Positions 10,145 through 18,715 of a stretch of 64,000 nucleotides of DNA are shown here, one piece after another; within the stretch, counting starts at the first letter, position 1, and every line of letters begins with the position of its first letter. The DNA comes from Oceanibacterium hippocampi (GTDB lineage Bacteria > Pseudomonadota > Alphaproteobacteria > Sneathiellales > Sneathiellaceae), in assembly GCF_900172325.1 (NCBI RefSeq), contig NZ_FWFR01000003.1, forward strand, positions 434,001 to 498,000. Direction: 5' to 3'. The translations under genes were made by a program, and so were the position numbers. The notes under the pieces are model-generated. The model was not told where the DNA came from, made no database searches, and saw nothing but the letters and a program-made list of their open reading frames with translations.

Positions 10145-11773
10145 TCAGGCGGTCGGCAGCTTGTAGTCCTTGAACTGCTCCCGCAGCTTGGTCTTGAGCA
10201 GCTTGCCGGTCGCCGTATGCGGCAACTCGTCGACGAAGACGATGTCGTCCGGCAGCTGCCACTTGGCGATATGCCGCGTCAGATGGTCGAGCACGGCCTC
10301 CTTGGTCACATCGGCGTCGGGCTTGCGGACCGCGATCATCAGCGGCCGCTCGGCCCATTTCGGATGGGGAACGGCGATCACCGCGGCCTCGGCGATGCCG
10401 GGGCAGCCGACCGCCTCGTTCTCGACATCGATCGACGAGATCCATTCGCCGCCCGACTTGATCACGTCCTTGGAACGGTCGGTGATCTGCATGTAGCCAT
10501 CGGGATCGAGGGTCGCGACGTCGCCGGTGTCGAAGAAGTCCTCATCGTCGAGGATCTTCCCGCCCTCGCCCTTGAAGTAGCCGTTGGTGATCCACGGGCC
10601 GCGGACCAGCAGATGGCCGAACGCCTTGCCGTCGTGCGGCAGTTCCTTGCCGTCGTCGTCGACGATCTTGAGATCGACGCCGAAGATCGCCCGGCCCTGC
10701 TTGACGCGAACGTCGATCTGCTTGTCGAAGGGCAGCGCGGCATGCTTGGCGCGCAGATTGCCGGTCGTGCCGAGCGGGCTCATCTCGGTCATGCCCCAGG
10801 CATGGATAACGTCGACGCCGTAGTCGCGCTGGAAGGTCTCGATCATCGAGCGCGGCGCCGCCGAGCCGCCGATGACGGTGCGGTTCATGGTCGAGAATTT
10901 CAGGCCCTTCGCCTTCACGTGGCCAAGCAGCATCAGCCAGACCGTCGGCACACCGGCCGAGAGCGTGACATTCTCGGTCTCGAGCAGCTCGTAAACCGAT
11001 TCACCGTCGAGCCGGGCGCCCGGCATCACCATCTTGGCGCCGCACATCGCCGCCGCGTAGGGCAGGCCCCAGGCATTGGCGTGGAACATCGGCACCACTG
11101 GCAGCACGACGTCGTGGCTCGACAGGGCAAGCCCGTCCATGGTGCAGACCGCCCAGCTGTGCAGGACCGTCGAGCGATGGGAATAGAGCACGCCCTTCGG
11201 ATTGCCGGTCGTGCCGGAGGTGTAGCAGAGCGATGAGGCCGTCCGCTCGTCGAAGCTCGGCCATTCGTAATCGTCGGTCTCCGCTTCGAGCAGGGTCTCG
11301 TAGCAATGCAGGCGGTCGACCTTGATGTCCGGCATGTGGGCGGCGTCGGTCATCGCGACGAAGCCCTTCACGTTCGGCAGATGGTCGGCGAGCGCCTCGA
11401 TCAGCGGCGCGAAGGTCAGATCGAAGAAGATGTATTTGTCCTCGGCATGATTCGCGATGTAGGTGATCTGCTCGGGAAACAGCCGCGGATTGAGGGTGTG
11501 CAGCACCGCACCCATGCCGGAGACTCCGAAATAGAGCTCCATGTGGCGATAGCCGTTCCAGGCCAGTGTGCCGATCCGGTCGCCGAGCGCGACGCCGAGC
11601 CGATCGAGCATCCTGGCAACCCGCTTGGAGCGGCTCGCCAGGTCCCGATAGGTGCAGCGGTGTATCGGGCCCTCGACCGTCCGCGAGACGATCTCGACGT
11701 CGCCGTGGAACTCAGCCGCGAAGTCGATCAACGAATGAATGAGTAGCGGCCGGTCTTGTATCAATCCGAGCAT
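10145..11773 (-). CDS. Acyl-CoA ligase (AMP-binding, medium/long-chain type)
   Basis: A 542-residue ANL-family ligase activating a carboxylic acid to its CoA thioester. Motifs in order: [55 protein letters not shown]-like [34 protein letters not shown], and the catalytic lysine segment [13 protein letters not shown] at the C-terminus. The HANAWGLPY motif is typical of AlkK-like medium-chain ligases. The ATG at 11773 is preceded by GGGGGGAT at good spacing; the frame runs further upstream, but over the neighbouring divergent gene. Probable operon with the reductase downstream. Confidence 0.9.
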
Positions 11774-11894
11774 TGCATCCCCCCGGGAGCCGAAAACTTG
11801 TTGTATGTGGTATGAGCATATATTCAGATTCGGGCCGCGAAAGGCAATCGCTTTGCACGACATTGTGGGGCGCTGGGGGGGTTGACGTCGCGTC

Positions 11895-12314
11895 ATGCTG
11901 CCGATCGAGATTCTGCTGCCGGTCGCGGCCGCGTCGGTTGCCCTTGTCATCGCGATCATCTGGATGCTTGGCGGGCGCCGCACGGCACGCCTCGATGAGG
12001 CCGCGGTTCGTGCCTTGCTCGCCGCGGAAGACCCGCCGCCGGACATCGTTCACCTTCTGATCGGACAGGACGAGCGCGCCGCGCTGGCGCAGGACGGCGC
12101 AGGACAGGTGTGGCTGGCCTATGCCCATGGCGACCGGACGAACCTGCGCCCGCTGGCCGCGCAGGACATTCGCGCCGCGGTGGTCCGCGAGCGATCGGGC
12201 AGCGCCCTGCTGGAACTGCGCCTCCGCGATGTCGCCCGACCCTGGCAGGTCCTGGCCTGCACCGACCGGGCAACCGCCGAATGCTGGCGCGAGCGTCTCG
12301 TTGCCCGTCGCTGA
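11895..12314 (+). CDS. Small membrane-anchored protein of unknown function
   Basis: A 139-residue protein with one N-terminal membrane helix (about residues 5-26, [21 protein letters not shown]) followed by a soluble, mostly cytoplasmic domain rich in Ala, Arg and Leu. I recognise no family motif. It lies divergent from the acyl-CoA ligase and 99 bases upstream of the EncFtn-like gene on the same strand. Codon use matches its neighbours, so I treat it as a real gene rather than a shadow. Confidence 0.6.
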
Positions 12315-12413
12315 TCGAAAGCATTGCGGCCCGGCACGCCGGTTGCCATTCTGGAAACGGGCCGCCACCATGACCGGCCCGCTGTTCGGACCGTAACGGA
12401 ACCAGGAATCATC

Positions 12414-12719
12414 ATGTCGAGCGAAAATCTCCATGCCCCCCGCGAGCGCCTCTCCAAGGAAACCCTTGCCATGCATCACGCGATCGTGTCGCTGATGGAG
12501 GAGCTGGAGGCGGTCGACTGGTACCGCCAGCGGGCCGACGACTGCGATGACGCCTCGCTGAAGGCCATCCTGCTGCACAACATGCGCGAGGAGATGGAGC
12601 ACGCCGCGATGGTGCTGGAATGGATCCGCCGCAACAACAAGGACTTCGAGAAGGAGATGAAGGACTACCTCTTCACCGACGGCGACATCGCCGGCCAGGA
12701 AGCGGAGCTTCACGACTAG
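12414..12719 (+). CDS. Encapsulated-ferritin (EncFtn) family ferroxidase, without an encapsulin tag
   Basis: A 101-residue two-helix protein. The segment VSLMEELEAVDWYRQRADD followed by EEMEHAAMVLEWIRR closely matches the EncFtn protein of Rhodospirillum rubrum. Residues corresponding to the dimer-interface ferroxidase centre are present: Glu30, Trp36, Tyr37, Glu60 and His63, plus entry-site acids Glu29 and Glu32. Members of the family assemble as an annular decamer that oxidises Fe(II) and passes it into an encapsulin shell. Here the C-terminus ends GDIAGQEAELHD with no recognisable cargo-loading peptide, and no encapsulin gene lies next to it. Five bases separate it from the membrane hydroxylase gene, so the two are probably cotranscribed. 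Confidence 0.88.
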   Translation: MSSENLHAPRERLSKETLAMHHAIVSLMEELEAVDWYRQRADDCDDASLKAILLHNMREEMEHAAMVLEWIRRNNKDFEKEMKDYLFTDGDIAGQEAELHD

Positions 12720-12724
12720 CTGCC

Positions 12725-13624
12725 ATGGACCTGCCCAAGGTTGTCGAGCTCGCCATTCCGGCCTTCGTCGTCCTGATCCTGATCGAGGCGGCGCTCGGCT
12801 ATTTCGACAGGCGCCGCGCCGATTACGAGGTTCGGGACACCGCGGCGAGCCTGCTGATGGGGCTCGGCAACTTCTCCTCCGGTCTGCTGACCGGGGTGCT
12901 CTACATCGTCGCGGCCGAGTGGCTCTACCAGTACCGGCTGTTCGACATCGGCTATGCCTGGTGGGCCTTCGTGCTGGTCTTCTTCCTGGAGGATCTCTGC
13001 TATTACTGGTTCCACCGGTTCAGTCACGAGCACCGCTTCTGGTGGGCGGCCCATGTGAACCACCATTCCTCCCAGCATTACAATCTCTCGACCGCGCTCC
13101 GGCAGACCTGGACCGGCAATCTCTGTTTCTCCTGGGTGGTCTGGCTGCCGCTGTCGCTGCTCGGCTTTCCGACCGCGCTGATCGTCTTCCAGAAGGGTGT
13201 CAGCCTCGTCTATCAGTTCTGGATCCATACCGAGGCGGTCCGGCGCCTGCCGGCGCCCATCGAATGGCTGTTCAATACGCCGAGCCATCACCGCGTCCAT
13301 CACGCGACCAACCCGCGCTATCTCGACCGGAACTATGCCGGGATCCTGATCATCTGGGACCGGATCTTCGGCACCTTCGTGCAGGAGGATGACGCTCTGC
13401 CCTGCCGCTACGGTATCGTGAAGCAGATCGGCAGCTTCAATCCGCTCAGGATTGCCTTCCACGAATGGTGGGAAATCGCGCGCGACCTGAAGGGCAGCCG
13501 GTCACTCCGGGAAGCGATCGGGTACCTGTTCGGGCCGCCGGGCTGGAGTCCCGACGGCTCCCGCCTCACTTCCGAGGCCATCCGCGCCCGGGCAATCGCG
13601 GACAGGGCCTCGGCGCCGTCCTGA
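12725..13624 (+). CDS. Sterol desaturase / fatty acid hydroxylase family membrane di-iron protein
   Basis: A 299-residue inner-membrane protein with at least four hydrophobic segments. The three histidine clusters of the family are complete: HRFSH (97-101), HVNHH (110-114) and HRVHH (189-193), together binding a non-haem di-iron centre. Such enzymes hydroxylate or desaturate lipids (sterols, fatty acids, carotenoids); the substrate cannot be told. The ATG at 12725 follows the EncFtn stop by five bases, so it is translationally coupled to an iron-oxidising protein. Confidence 0.88.
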   Translation: MDLPKVVELAIPAFVVLILIEAALGYFDRRRADYEVRDTAASLLMGLGNFSSGLLTGVLYIVAAEWLYQYRLFDIGYAWWAFVLVFFLEDLCYYWFHRFSHEHRFWWAAHVNHHSSQHYNLSTALRQTWTGNLCFSWVVWLPLSLLGFPTALIVFQKGVSLVYQFWIHTEAVRRLPAPIEWLFNTPSHHRVHHATNPRYLDRNYAGILIIWDRIFGTFVQEDDALPCRYGIVKQIGSFNPLRIAFHEWWEIARDLKGSRSLREAIGYLFGPPGWSPDGSRLTSEAIRARAIADRASAPS

Positions 13625-13631
13625 ACCGGCC

Positions 13632-14960
13632 TTGACCGTCGGGCCCGTCGCGCTCGCCGCATTCGTCGCGATCGCCGCGCTCCTGGGCGGCTGCGGCCCG
13701 CGCTTCGACAGTCAGCAGGCCGATCTCTGCGAGGCCGTGCTGCCGGCGATCGAGGACAGCGGCGCATTGCCGCAGGTCGTCGCCCGGGCGAGCCTGGAGC
13801 GTCCGGCGGGCAGCATCGAGATCCGCTACCGTCTTGCCGGCGGCGATCAGCTCTTCTGGCTGCGCTGCCGCTTCGAAGGCACCGGGTTCGACCGCGACCG
13901 GCTGGTGCTGGCCGCGGTCGAAAGCGAACGGCATGGCGCGCTCGACGACATATCGCTGCATTTCCTGAAGCGCTTCTGGCTCGGCGCATTCCGGGGCGGT
14001 GACGCGGTCGCAAGCGACAGCATGGACATCGGCGCGCAGCTCGCCTATGCCGCGCAGCAGCTCATCAATGCCTCGTCGCTCGCGGCCGTCTACGCCCTGC
14101 TGGCACTCGCCTACGCGCTCATCCATCAGGTCATCGGCCGCTTCAACCTCGCCTTCGGCGAATTCGCCATGATGGGCGCCTTCACCGCCTTCGTCGCGAT
14201 CACGCTCGCCAACGGCGCCGGGCTGGTGCTTCCGGTCGTTCTGCTGCTTTCCGCCGTCGCCGCGGGGCTGTTCGGCGGCCATGTCGGCATCGCCGTCAAC
14301 GCCACCGTGTTCGCCCCGCTGGCGCGAAGCCGGAGCCAGGCGCCCCTGATCGCCACCATCGGCCTGGCCATCGCCATCCCGGAAGCGGTGCGGATCGTCA
14401 CCGGCGCGGACGAGCATTGGGTGCAATCGGTCTATGGCGACAGCTTGCGCATTGCCAGCCTCGGCAGTTTCGATGTCACGGTGACGGCGCGCCAGCTTCT
14501 GCTCGTCGGCGTCGCCATCGGGCTGATCGCGGCGGTTCTCCTCGGTCTCCGCGGCAGCGCCTTCGGCCGTGCCCATCGCGCCGTATCGGACGATCCGGGA
14601 ATGGCGGCGCTCTGCGGAATCGATACCGCCGCCACGATCCGCCAGAGCTTCGCGCTCGCCTCTGCGCTGGCCGGGATCGCCGGCTTCATCCACCTGGTCC
14701 ATTACGGCGGGATCGGTTTCGCCAGTGGCACGATGCTGGGCTTCAAGGCGCTGGTCGCGGCGATCGTGGGCGGCCTCGGCTCGCCGGCCGGGGCCATTGC
14801 CGGGGCACTGTTCGTCGCCCTCCTGGAAACCGGCTGGGCCGCCTATTTCGATATTGCCTACAGGGAAGTCGCGGTCTTCGCGCTGCTCGCGCTGGCGCTC
14901 GTGATCCGCCCCGACGGCCTTCTCGGCCCGAGACCCCCGGTCGTCGGCCCGAACGGCTGA
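13632..14960 (+). CDS. Orphan LivH-type ABC permease with a lipoprotein-like N-terminal domain
   Basis: A 442-residue protein read from a TTG at 13632, 8 bases after the previous stop. Residues 5-21 form a hydrophobic leader ending in LLGGC, a possible lipobox (Cys21). About 100 residues of soluble sequence follow (DLCEAVLPAIED, FWLRCRFEGTG, LHFLKRFWLG). From about residue 137 it is a LivH permease: SSLAAVYALLALAYAL, FGEFAMMGAFTAF and VGGLGSPAGAIAGAL in the ATPase-contact loop. No livM, livG, livF or receptor gene adjoins it; the next gene is on the opposite strand. I have seen similar N-terminal extensions on alphaproteobacterial LivH homologues, but the role of the domain is unknown. Confidence 0.82.
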   Translation: MTVGPVALAAFVAIAALLGGCGPRFDSQQADLCEAVLPAIEDSGALPQVVARASLERPAGSIEIRYRLAGGDQLFWLRCRFEGTGFDRDRLVLAAVESERHGALDDISLHFLKRFWLGAFRGGDAVASDSMDIGAQLAYAAQQLINASSLAAVYALLALAYALIHQVIGRFNLAFGEFAMMGAFTAFVAITLANGAGLVLPVVLLLSAVAAGLFGGHVGIAVNATVFAPLARSRSQAPLIATIGLAIAIPEAVRIVTGADEHWVQSVYGDSLRIASLGSFDVTVTARQLLLVGVAIGLIAAVLLGLRGSAFGRAHRAVSDDPGMAALCGIDTAATIRQSFALASALAGIAGFIHLVHYGGIGFASGTMLGFKALVAAIVGGLGSPAGAIAGALFVALLETGWAAYFDIAYREVAVFALLALALVIRPDGLLGPRPPVVGPNG

Positions 14961-14977: not shown

Positions 14978-15907
14978 TCAGCCTTCGCCGAGACCGTCCA
15001 GCCAGGCGATCAAGTCGGCAATCACCGCGTCGCGGTTGATCTCGTGCAGCAACTCGTGCCGGGCGTCCGGATAGAGTTTGGAGGTCACCCGGCGCAGCCC
15101 GGCACGTTCGTAGGCGGCGAGCAGGCGCGCCACGCCGCGACCGCGTTCACCGACCGGGTCCTCGGTGCCGGCGAAGACATAAAGCGGCAGGTCCTTCGGC
15201 ATCCGGGCGATCGCCTCGGGCTCGCCAAGGCCCGGCAGGGCATCGAGCAGCGAAACCCAGGTCGCGGTCGAGCAGTCGAACCCGCAAAGCGGATCGGCGA
15301 CATAGAGATCGACCTCGGCCTCGTCCCGCGACAGCCAGTCGAAATCGGTTCGCGCCGGCGCGAAAGGCTTGTTGAAGGCGCCGAAGGTGAGCGACTGGAT
15401 CAGCGGGCTGGGCGCCCGGCGGCCCAGGCGGAACTGCTCGGCACGGGCGACGAGGCGGCCAAGGCGTGCGACTGCGCCCGGCGGCCCGTTCGTCGACGAC
15501 AGCATGATCGCCGAATAGGCCTCGCCATCGTCGATGGCCAGCCGTTGCGCCATGAACGAACCCATGGAATGCCCGAACAGCATGACCGGCAGCGCGGGCA
15601 GGCGTTCGCGGACGATGCCGGTCAGGGTCCGGAGATCACGCACCGCCTTGGCCCAACCGTCCTCGTCCGCCATATGGCCCAGATCGGCGCGGCTCGGGAC
15701 CGAACGGCCGTGCCCCCGATGGTCCGGGGCGTAGACCGCGTAACCGGCACCGTTGAGCGCGCGGGCAAACCCTTCGTAGCGGCTGGCATGCTCGGCCATG
15801 CCGTGGGCGACGATGACCACCGCGCGCGGGGCGTCGAGCGGCCATTCGACGGTCTGGATATCGAGCCCGTCCTCGCCCGCGAAACTGAAGCTCCGGCTTT
15901 CGCTCAC
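14978..15907 (-). CDS. Alpha/beta hydrolase (monoacylglycerol-lipase-like, Hydrolase_4)
   Basis: A 309-residue serine hydrolase. The oxyanion region VIVAHGMAEHASRYEGFA and APDHRGHGRS followed by the nucleophile elbow FGHSMGSFMAQRL are typical of monoglyceride lipases and lysophospholipases; DARHELLHE near the end supplies the catalytic histidine. The GTG at 15907 (V-SESRSFSF) is preferred: GGGAG lies 7 bases upstream and the more N-terminal ATG at 16060 would overlap the divergent aminotransferase. No signal peptide is seen. Confidence 0.85.
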   Translation of the reverse strand: MSESRSFSFAGEDGLDIQTVEWPLDAPRAVVIVAHGMAEHASRYEGFARALNGAGYAVYAPDHRGHGRSVPSRADLGHMADEDGWAKAVRDLRTLTGIVRERLPALPVMLFGHSMGSFMAQRLAIDDGEAYSAIMLSSTNGPPGAVARLGRLVARAEQFRLGRRAPSPLIQSLTFGAFNKPFAPARTDFDWLSRDEAEVDLYVADPLCGFDCSTATWVSLLDALPGLGEPEAIARMPKDLPLYVFAGTEDPVGERGRGVARLLAAYERAGLRRVTSKLYPDARHELLHEINRDAVIADLIAWLDGLGEG

Positions 15908-16041
15908 ATCCCTGCTCCCGCCGCCAGGGCCGGCGCTGCCCCGATGCCCGGCGCCTGCAACATTGCCGTGTACGGCGCACAGTTGGCAAGCCATCGTCGC
16001 CCGTCTAAGGTGCTGGCAAACCTCCACACAGGACATTAAGC

Positions 16042-17439
16042 ATGAGCAACGTTGCAGCAAGCATTGCCAACTCGCCGGCGCGGCGGGACATCGACAACCT
16101 GATCCATCCCTACACCAATCTCGCGCTGCACGAAGAAATCGGGCCGCTGATCATCGAGCGCGGCGAGGGCGTCCATGTCTTCGATTCCGAGGGTCGGCAA
16201 TATATCGAGGGGCTGGCCGGTCTCTGGTGCACGTCCTTCGGCTTCAACGAGAACGAACTGATCGAGGCGGCGATCGCGCAGATGCGGAAGCTGCCGACCT
16301 ATCATGGCTTCGGCCACAAGTCGGTCAATCCGGCGATCGATCTCGCCGAGAAACTGAAGGCGGTCGCGCCGGTACCCTTCTCGCATGTCTTCTTCGCCAA
16401 TTCCGGGTCGGAAGCCAACGACACCGTGATCAAGCTGGTCTGGTACTTCAACAACTCGCGTGGCCGGCCGGAGAAGAAGAAGATCATCAGCCGCATCAAG
16501 GGCTACCACGGCGTCACCGTCGCCGCGGCGAGCCTGACCGGCCTGGCGCCGCTGCACGCCGACTTCGATCTGCCCATCGCCCGCATCCTGCACACCTCCT
16601 GCCCGCATCACTACCGCTTCGGCAAGGACGGCGAGAGCGAGGAAGACTTCGCGACGCGCTGCGCCGAGGAACTGGAGGCGATGATCCAGAAGGAAGGCCC
16701 GGAGACGGTCGCCGCCTTCATCGCCGAGCCGGTGATGGGCGCCGGCGGCGTGATCGTCCCGCCGAAAGGCTACTTCGAGAAGATCCAGGCCGTCCTGAAG
16801 CGTCACGACATCCTCATGATCGCCGACGAGGTGATCTGCGGCTTCGGGCGCACCGGCAACTTCTGGGGCAGCCAGACCTTCGGCATCAAGCCGGACATCC
16901 TGACCTGCGCCAAGCAGCTCTCGTCCGCCTATCTGCCGATCTCGGCGGTGCTTGTCTCCGAAGACATCTACCAGGCGATGCTCGACGAAAGCCGCAAGCA
17001 GGGCGCCTTCGCGCACGGCTTCACCTATTCCGGCCACCCGGTCCCGGCGGCGGTCGGCCTGCGCACCCTGCAGCTGATGGAAGAGCGCGACATCATGGGC
17101 CATGTCCGGGCCGTCGCGCCGCGTTTCCAGCAGCGCCTCAAGGCGCTCGGCGACCACCCGCTGGTCGGCGAAACCCGCGGCGTCGGCCTGATCGCCGGCA
17201 TCGAGCTGGTCGCCGACAAGGCGAGCCATGCCTCCTTCGACGGCAAGAAGGCGGTCGGACCGACGGCGGTCAAGCTGGCCCAGGGCGAAGGCCTGATCAG
17301 CCGTGCCGTGGGCGGCGATACGCTCGCCCTCTGCCCGCCGCTGATCGTCACCGAAGAACAGATCGACGCGATCTTCGATCGCATGGAAGCGGCCCTCGAC
17401 AAGACCGAGGCCTGGGTCAAGGCGGAAGGCCTGCGCTGA
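16042..17439 (+). CDS. Class III aminotransferase (omega-aminotransferase)
   Basis: A 465-residue PLP enzyme of fold type I. Key features: NSGSEANDTVIKLV at about 120 (phosphate cup), the ADEVICGFGRTG motif with Asp262 contacting the pyridine nitrogen, and Lys291 in LTCAKQLSSAYLPI as the Schiff-base lysine. The family moves amino groups between omega-amino acids or amines (for example beta-alanine, GABA, putrescine or taurine) and pyruvate or other oxo acids. Length and the N-terminal HPYTN motif match omega-amino acid:pyruvate-type enzymes. The gene stands alone and ends before a clear terminator. Confidence 0.9.
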   Translation: MSNVAASIANSPARRDIDNLIHPYTNLALHEEIGPLIIERGEGVHVFDSEGRQYIEGLAGLWCTSFGFNENELIEAAIAQMRKLPTYHGFGHKSVNPAIDLAEKLKAVAPVPFSHVFFANSGSEANDTVIKLVWYFNNSRGRPEKKKIISRIKGYHGVTVAAASLTGLAPLHADFDLPIARILHTSCPHHYRFGKDGESEEDFATRCAEELEAMIQKEGPETVAAFIAEPVMGAGGVIVPPKGYFEKIQAVLKRHDILMIADEVICGFGRTGNFWGSQTFGIKPDILTCAKQLSSAYLPISAVLVSEDIYQAMLDESRKQGAFAHGFTYSGHPVPAAVGLRTLQLMEERDIMGHVRAVAPRFQQRLKALGDHPLVGETRGVGLIAGIELVADKASHASFDGKKAVGPTAVKLAQGEGLISRAVGGDTLALCPPLIVTEEQIDAIFDRMEAALDKTEAWVKAEGLR

Positions 17440-17502: not shown

Positions 17503-17611
17503 CCCGCGAACGTGATACACTTTCCTCGCATTTGACGTCGAATGTTGTGTCACATCGATCCAGGCGGAGTCGATGGCCGCAGCGTTCCGTCCAGCTTGGG
17601 AGAGCGCACCG

Positions 17612-18715
17612 ATGGCAAGTTCAAAGAGCGACCGTCTCGCGGAGAGCCTCGCGGCCGATTTCACGTTGCCGCCCGGCCTGACCGACGAGGCCCCCGATCC
17701 CGAGAAGCTGCTGTTCAACGGCGAGGAGCCGCCGGCCTTCCCCGAAGGCAACATCTTCCCGCTGGAATGGCGGGTCGAGACGCCGAAACTGGAAGAGCTT
17801 TACGAGAAGTCCCGCGATCCGGGCTGGTCGCCCGAGCGCCTGCCCTGGGACACGCTCGACGTCGACAGCATGAGCTGGGACGAACGCTACGCGGTCGCCT
17901 ACTGGTTCGCCCTGCTTTCGGTGTTCGACGCCTCGGGCCCGGCGGTCTTCGCCCGCGCCATGATCCACACCTACGAGACGCACGAGGAAGCGCCGATCCG
18001 GAAATGCTTCTTCGCGATCACCCGCGACGAGCATAATCACGAGGAAGTCTGCCAGCGGGCGATCCAGACGATGGTGCCGAACGGGCCACTCGACTTCGAG
18101 CCCAGGACCGTGCTCGGCAAGCTCGCCCGCCACAACATCAAGTGGTACTACCACAACGGCGCGCGCTACTGGACCGGCTACAACAAGGCCGTCTCCCGCT
18201 ATCCGCTGCCGATCCTGTTCACCTCCTTCCTGTTCGGCGAAGTCGCCTCATCGACGCTGTTCAGCTCGATGCACGAGGCGACCACGATCCCGGTCTTCAA
18301 GGAGGCTTTCCGCCGTATTGCCCAGGACGAGGCCCGTCATCGCGCGATCTGCATGTTCGTGCTGAAGAAGCTTCTGCCGGCGCTGACGGACGAGGAAAAG
18401 TCGACCATCACGCGCCAGCTTCGCGCCGGCTTCGTCTTCCTGTCGGGCATCCTCTACGAGCCGCCGGAAGGCGAGTTCTGGGAACTGCCGGCGATCTTCC
18501 GGCCGGCGCACCGGCTCCTGGAGGAAAAGGCCCGTGAAGCCGGTCTCGGCGTGCTCAGCGTCGAGAAGCGGGAAGAGAACTGGCGCGAGGCGGTGCTCAA
18601 GATGAAGGGCGTCATCGAGCCTTACGGCATCGCATTCCCGGCCCTGCCGGAAATCGGCGTCGACGGCGAAACCGTCGCCTTCGATCCGAACGAGGAATTC
18701 GTCGCCGTCTTCTGA
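17612..18715 (+). CDS. Ferritin-like di-iron protein of unknown function
   Basis: A 367-residue soluble protein with the four-helix-bundle di-iron pattern: helix-A glutamates in ETHEE (122-126), E140-x-x-H143 in TRDEHNHEE, a glutamate in LFGEVASS (Glu210), and E240-x-x-H243 in QDEARHRAI. This is the layout of carboxylate-bridged di-iron oxygenases and oxidases such as the AurF, acyl-ACP desaturase and R2 classes; I cannot name the substrate. The ATG at 17612 has GGAGAG 7 bases upstream; an in-frame ATG at 17573 has a poorly spaced site. The C-terminal 90 residues are outside the bundle. It is monocistronic between two oppositely arranged units. Confidence 0.78.
   Translation: MASSKSDRLAESLAADFTLPPGLTDEAPDPEKLLFNGEEPPAFPEGNIFPLEWRVETPKLEELYEKSRDPGWSPERLPWDTLDVDSMSWDERYAVAYWFALLSVFDASGPAVFARAMIHTYETHEEAPIRKCFFAITRDEHNHEEVCQRAIQTMVPNGPLDFEPRTVLGKLARHNIKWYYHNGARYWTGYNKAVSRYPLPILFTSFLFGEVASSTLFSSMHEATTIPVFKEAFRRIAQDEARHRAICMFVLKKLLPALTDEEKSTITRQLRAGFVFLSGILYEPPEGEFWELPAIFRPAHRLLEEKAREAGLGVLSVEKREENWREAVLKMKGVIEPYGIAFPALPEIGVDGETVAFDPNEEFVAVF

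What the first reader, a model, noticed from the sequence alone, without database searches (positions are those of the whole stretch)
12414..13624. EncFtn-type ferroxidase without encapsulin or cargo tag, coupled to a membrane di-iron hydroxylase
The 101-residue protein keeps the EncFtn ferroxidase residues (Glu30, Trp36, Glu60, His63) but ends GDIAGQEAELHD, with no encapsulin-targeting peptide, and no encapsulin gene adjoins it. Instead it starts 5 bases before a sterol-desaturase-family hydroxylase that itself needs two irons. This suggests, as inference, a shell-free ferroxidase that works with the membrane di-iron enzyme (iron delivery or protection). EncFtn is known mainly as encapsulin cargo, so a free version with a different partner would be new.
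Basis: partly seen in the sequence, partly recalled or inferred. Interest (0 to 1): 0.68.

Follow-up and report, generated by a model that had tools for sequence, protein, structure and literature searches.

The report
Tagless ferroxidase gene inserted beside hydroxylase
This is a real iron-oxidising ring protein of the EncFtn family in a genome with no encapsulin shell gene, but tagless, shell-free versions are common and already described, and its place next to a membrane hydroxylase is a one-lineage insertion that no relative examined shares.

Summary
The sequence reading is correct. 12414-12719(+) encodes a 101-aa EncFtn with every ferroxidase residue and no cargo tag, 5 nt before a PF04116 hydroxylase, and the genome has no family-1 encapsulin. 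(1) Tagless EncFtn is a named class: "s-FLP", PDB 3k6c, earlier called non-encapsulated. Of the 80 closest named relatives, 77 are tagless with no shell gene in the fetched flanks; only the 3 tagged ones have one. In 387 alphaproteobacterial genomes, 64 carry EncFtn; 49 of these lack encapsulin, and all 15 with a clear shell carry a tagged EncFtn. (2) The hydroxylase partner is not conserved. It is next to EncFtn in none of the 80 relatives. In the sister genus the two never lie together, and 11 of 25 genomes have the hydroxylase without EncFtn. There the hydroxylase directly follows a small ORF inside a conserved block; here EncFtn has been inserted between those two genes, and it resembles EncFtn of unrelated taxa (up to 87%) more than that of the sister genus (61-67%). 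Best reading: a shell-free decameric ferroxidase, probably horizontally acquired. Residual interest: shell-free EncFtn is the majority form in this class, and tag and shell occur together.

The parts
12414..12719 (+). Short, tagless EncFtn-like ferroxidase (s-FLP), 101 aa
   Evidence: PF22277 132 bits; PDB 3k6c/5n5f/5da5; model pLDDT 87.6; ferroxidase residues invariant
12725..13624 (+). Membrane fatty-acid-hydroxylase/sterol-desaturase family enzyme, 299 aa; resident gene of the conserved block
   Evidence: PF04116 104.8 bits; 64-70% identical copies in 21 of 25 sister-genus genomes
11895..12314 (+). Small ORF of unknown family, 139 aa; N-terminal hydrophobic stretch; adjoins or overlaps the hydroxylase gene in the sister genus
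   Evidence: no Pfam hit; 28-37% identical copy next to the hydroxylase gene in all 14 sister-genus loci fetched
12315..12413 (+). 99-nt gap between the small ORF and EncFtn; Shine-Dalgarno-like AGGA before the EncFtn ATG; no sigma-70 promoter or terminator pattern found
   Evidence: sequence
10145..12046 (-). Acyl-CoA-ligase-like AMP-binding enzyme (start uncertain); left part of the conserved block
   Evidence: PF00501; 64-78% identical at the same place in the sister genus
14978..16060 (-). Putative alpha/beta hydrolase (named from its sequence, not profile-tested here; start uncertain); part of the conserved block
   Evidence: 52-56% identical at the same place in the sister genus
16042..17439 (+). 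Class-III aminotransferase; right part of the conserved block
   Evidence: PF00202; 68-71% identical at the same place in the sister genus

Best explanation
The gene encodes an ordinary short EncFtn (s-FLP): two long helices per subunit, expected to form a decameric ring with a di-iron ferroxidase site at each subunit pair, working free in the cytoplasm because the genome has no encapsulin. It most likely oxidises Fe(II) as an iron-buffering or detoxifying enzyme; the genome also has a bacterioferritin and a Dps-like protein that could store the product. The gene was acquired horizontally (or relocated) in this lineage, landing between a small ORF and the hydroxylase gene that follow each other directly in the sister genus. 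The 5-nt spacing makes cotranscription with the hydroxylase plausible, but there is no evidence of a conserved functional partnership. Shown: family, active-site residues, absence of shell and tag, insertion site. Inferred: ring assembly, ferroxidase activity of this particular protein, cellular role, hand-over of iron to bacterioferritin.
For: Family and fold. Active site invariant in 145 homologues. No shell in the genome. 77 of 80 named relatives tagless; encapsulin lies beside the 3 tagged ones only. Class survey: 64 genomes with EncFtn, 15 with a clear encapsulin, all 15 within the 64; tag-bearing tail in the 15 shell genomes, none in the other 49. Hydroxylase not a neighbour in relatives. 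Sister-genus block without EncFtn. DNA similarity to relatives confined to 12392-12707, essentially the EncFtn coding sequence. A tag-truncated R. rubrum EncFtn forms decamers and oxidises Fe(II) without the shell but cannot store iron: PMC5012862. Bacterioferritin and Dps-like genes in the genome.
Against: No biochemistry exists for this protein or, in the papers read here, for any s-FLP; 3k6c is an unpublished structure. Relocation and horizontal transfer cannot be told apart firmly because the EncFtn tree has only 97 columns and many unresolved forks. The 5-nt spacing may reflect selection for joint expression in this one lineage.
Confidence: 0.85

Rival explanations
1. Functional partnership as proposed by the first reader: a free ferroxidase that delivers iron to, or protects, the membrane di-iron hydroxylase.
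For: 5-nt spacing and same strand; both proteins bind two irons by family.
Against: The pair is absent in 80 of 80 named relatives and in all same-family genomes: 10 sister-genus genomes have both genes at unlinked places and 11 have the hydroxylase without EncFtn. Oxidising Fe(II) is also an unlikely way of loading a di-iron enzyme, which takes up Fe(II) (general knowledge, inference).
Confidence: 0.06
2. The protein is still encapsulin cargo, binding a shell through an unrecognised short tail, as PMC11202242 considers possible for s-FLPs.
For: s-FLPs share the decamer and core of cargo EncFtn (PMC11202242).
Against: No family-1 or family-2 shell gene in this 99.4% complete genome; 49 of 64 EncFtn-bearing alphaproteobacterial genomes also lack a family-1 shell.
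Confidence: 0.03
3. Non-functional passenger: an acquired gene drifting without a role.
For: Isolated insertion; no conserved neighbour.
Against: Open frame with all active-site residues kept and up to 87% identity to homologues in other taxa, which points to purifying selection.
Confidence: 0.05

Closest known systems
s-FLP, short ferritin-like protein without targeting peptide: NE0167 of Nitrosomonas europaea, PDB 3k6c
   Same: 95-101 aa, two-helix EncFtn core, di-iron residues, no tag; about 60% identity; tagless class described in PMC11202242
   Different: This protein lies in a different subclade (LHAPRERL-type N terminus); the sister genus carries a type whose N terminus (GYHEP..LSDETRDMHRAI) resembles NE0167
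Rhodospirillum rubrum EncFtn Rru_A0973 (PDB 5da5), encapsulin cargo
   Same: Same fold (TM 0.79/0.87) and identical ferroxidase, entry and exit residues
   Different: R. rubrum EncFtn is 140 aa with a tail carrying the shell-localisation sequence, and has a shell (PMC5012862); here neither exists
PF04116 fatty acid hydroxylase superfamily (only NCBIfam hit: ornithine lipid hydroxylase OlsE, far below its cut-off)
   Same: Membrane enzyme with the histidine boxes HX3H, HX2HH, HX2HH
   Different: 63 bits against a cut-off of 475 for OlsE: substrate unknown, not an OlsE

Membership tests
EncFtn-like (PF22277) | Profile match above the curated cut-off | tested here: met
   132.3 bits against 27
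EncFtn-like (PF22277) | Ferroxidase ligands E32, E62, H65 and neighbouring W38/Y39 (R. rubrum numbering) | tested here: met
   E30, E60, H63, W36, Y37 present and invariant in 145 homologues
EncFtn-like (PF22277) | Two long antiparallel helices plus a short third helix | tested here: met
   Model helices 15-42, 47-74, 76-85; best PDB matches are EncFtn chains
EncFtn-like (PF22277) | Decameric ring with ferroxidase activity | not testable with these tools
   Only a monomer was modelled; activity known for truncated R. rubrum EncFtn (PMC5012862)
Encapsulin-associated EncFtn (TIGR04535, cargo type) | C-terminal targeting peptide such as LGIGSL | tested here: not met
   Tail is GDIAGQEAELHD; 109.9 bits, below the cut-off of 125
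Encapsulin-associated EncFtn (TIGR04535, cargo type) | Encapsulin shell gene in the genome | tested here: not met
   PF04454 absent, control rings; PF19307 absent
s-FLP (short tagless EncFtn, 3k6c type) | About 95-105 aa, no long disordered tail, no targeting peptide | tested here: met
   101 aa, no tag
Conserved EncFtn-hydroxylase two-gene system | The pair kept together in relatives | tested here: not met
   0 of 80 named relatives; 0 of 12 sister-genus EncFtn loci

The most novel reading that the evidence does not exclude
Shell-free EncFtn rings are the commonest form of this family in Alphaproteobacteria and act as a separate iron-oxidising system without a cage. Encapsulation would then be a derived state reached more than once, by gaining a tag together with a shell gene.
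Probability: 0.35. Interest if true: 0.5.

Novelty: new member of a known kind. Interest (0 to 1): 0.25.

Why it matters
It removes a tempting but false lead, an EncFtn-hydroxylase module, by showing with sister-genus gene order that EncFtn is a recent insertion there. It also bears on a point left open in the 2024 review (PMC11202242), whether tagless EncFtn might still be packaged: in 49 of 64 EncFtn-bearing alphaproteobacterial genomes there is no family-1 shell to package it in, and presence of a tagged EncFtn and of a shell match in all 64.

Tried and rejected
Conserved partner gene of tagless EncFtn: ORF clustering over 80 loci found no neighbour family shared beyond 5-7 loci (larger clusters were only antisense or frame-shifted readings over EncFtn itself); the representatives checked are unrelated to each other, e.g. 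LysR regulator, sigma factor, molybdopterin oxidoreductase, EF-G, amidase, Cys-tRNA ligase. Iron- or redox-responsive upstream motif (ICE, IRO, Fur-, OxyR-, FNR-like): no enrichment upstream of 159 EncFtn genes, none in the window. Promoter or terminator between the genes: none matched. Solved structure of the hydroxylase by sequence: none. A first encapsulin scan of the named loci used wrong ORFs as queries and was redone correctly.

Full report
Observation. The two genes are real and the coordinates correct. 12414-12719(+) encodes 101 aa starting MSSENLHAPRERL and ending GDIAGQEAELHD. It matches PF22277 EncFtn-like with 132.3 bits and, in the PDB, EncFtn of Haliangium, Rhodospirillum and Nitrosomonas. 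The hydroxylase starts at 12725, five bases after the EncFtn stop codon, and matches PF04116. An AlphaFold model (pLDDT 87.6) has EncFtn crystal structures as its best matches, 56-57% identical with rmsd 1.5-1.9, and 3k6c at about 60%.

Shell. The genome (4.83 Mb, 99.4% complete) has no family-1 encapsulin (control rings in three genomes) and no family-2 shell (the same profile rings strongly in two of 241 genomes of the class). It has a single EncFtn, plus a bacterioferritin and a Dps-like protein.

Is a tagless EncFtn new? No. A 2024 review names a class of short ferritin-like proteins without targeting peptide, s-FLP, with PDB 3k6c (NE0167, Nitrosomonas europaea) as its structure, and says they were first classified as non-encapsulated, citing Giessen and Silver 2017 (PMC11202242). 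In the closest 80 named relatives, 77 are tagless and 3 have a tail with a targeting motif. Encapsulin lies directly downstream of exactly those 3 and is absent from the fetched flanks of the other 77 (flanks up to 6 kb, shorter in some). In an even sample of 387 alphaproteobacterial genomes, 64 have a strong EncFtn match (E below 1e-30, counted from the table) and 15 a strong encapsulin (a sixteenth hit, G411, is marginal at E 7e-7). All 15 lie within the 64. EncFtn of those 15 carries a long tail ending in motifs such as LGIGSL, LGIRSL or LTIGRM, and none of the other 49 carries such a motif (one, L212, is 112 aa with a lysine-rich end). G401 has both a tailed copy beside the shell and a tagless copy elsewhere. 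So a tagged EncFtn and a shell go together, and tagless, shell-free EncFtn is the usual form. On the tree, tag state needs at least 4 changes, at least 2 forced by well-supported branches (97 columns only, many forks unresolved).

Is the hydroxylase a partner? The evidence says no. Among 80 named loci, 77 with at least 1 kb downstream, none has a hydroxylase next to EncFtn; one (L038) has a 26% identical one about 2 kb away. In the sister genus of the same family, 12 of 25 genomes have EncFtn and 21 of 25 a 64-70% identical hydroxylase. Ten have both, always on different contigs or about 360-405 kb apart; eleven have the hydroxylase without EncFtn (some of these genomes are incomplete). The EncFtn loci of the sister genus contain no hydroxylase.

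How did the pair arise? In the 14 sister-genus hydroxylase loci fetched, the hydroxylase lies in a conserved block: acyl-CoA-ligase-like AMP-binding gene, hydroxylase, putative alpha/beta hydrolase, aminotransferase. The small ORF that stands at 11895-12314 in the window has a 28-37% identical counterpart directly upstream of the hydroxylase in all 14 loci. In the loci read in detail its end abuts or overlaps the hydroxylase start. In the window the same order is kept, but EncFtn stands between the small ORF and the hydroxylase. EncFtn is therefore the newcomer and the hydroxylase the resident (the alternative, independent loss of EncFtn from the same spot throughout the sister genus, is less economical). 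The window's EncFtn is 61-67% identical to the sister genus's EncFtn but up to 87% identical to EncFtn of unrelated alphaproteobacteria, gammaproteobacteria and MAGs assigned to other phyla, so horizontal acquisition is more likely than a move within the genome. DNA similarity to relatives covers 12392-12707 only, so no flanking DNA identifies a donor.

Mechanism. The best-supported role is a shell-free ferroxidase ring. A truncated R. rubrum EncFtn without targeting sequence forms decamers and oxidises Fe(II) alone, gives a precipitate at high iron, and needs the shell for storage (PMC5012862). A tagless natural protein with the same residues should behave likewise. The cell's bacterioferritin could take up the iron; this step is inference. 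Delivery of iron to the hydroxylase is not supported, and oxidising Fe(II) is an unlikely way of loading a di-iron enzyme (inference from general knowledge). Joint transcription in this lineage remains possible given the 5-nt gap and the lack of a recognisable promoter or terminator between the genes, though that scan covers one promoter type only.

Verdict. Interest 0.25. The residual open point is the biology of shell-free EncFtn as a group, and whether encapsulation was gained repeatedly.

Noticed in passing
window 13632-14960(+): Branched-chain-type ABC permease with an extra N-terminal stretch of about 140 aa (TTG start uncertain), standing between the hydroxylase and the putative hydrolase, whereas several sister-genus loci have the hydrolase directly after the hydroxylase; possibly a second lineage-specific insertion at the same spot.
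   Followed up: partly
window 17573-18715(+): 380-aa protein with weak rubrerythrin, ribonucleotide-reductase-small-chain and AurF similarity (34, 25 and 23 bits) and no NCBIfam hit: a possible further di-iron protein in the neighbourhood.
   Followed up: no
L124 and L211 (genome G401): One genome carries two EncFtn genes: a tailed one beside encapsulin (tail ending DLGIRSLKA) and a tagless one elsewhere on the same chromosome, suggesting the two forms do different jobs.
   Followed up: partly
L059, L075, L076, L095: Tagged EncFtn with an encapsulin only about 29% identical to the main alphaproteobacterial type, nested in the otherwise tagless LHAPRERL clade: a separate gain (or retention) of encapsulation.
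   Followed up: partly
window 11895-12314(+): Small ORF with an N-terminal hydrophobic stretch and no Pfam match, kept beside the hydroxylase in the sister genus and in a related family (L181): a likelier functional partner of the hydroxylase than EncFtn.
   Followed up: partly
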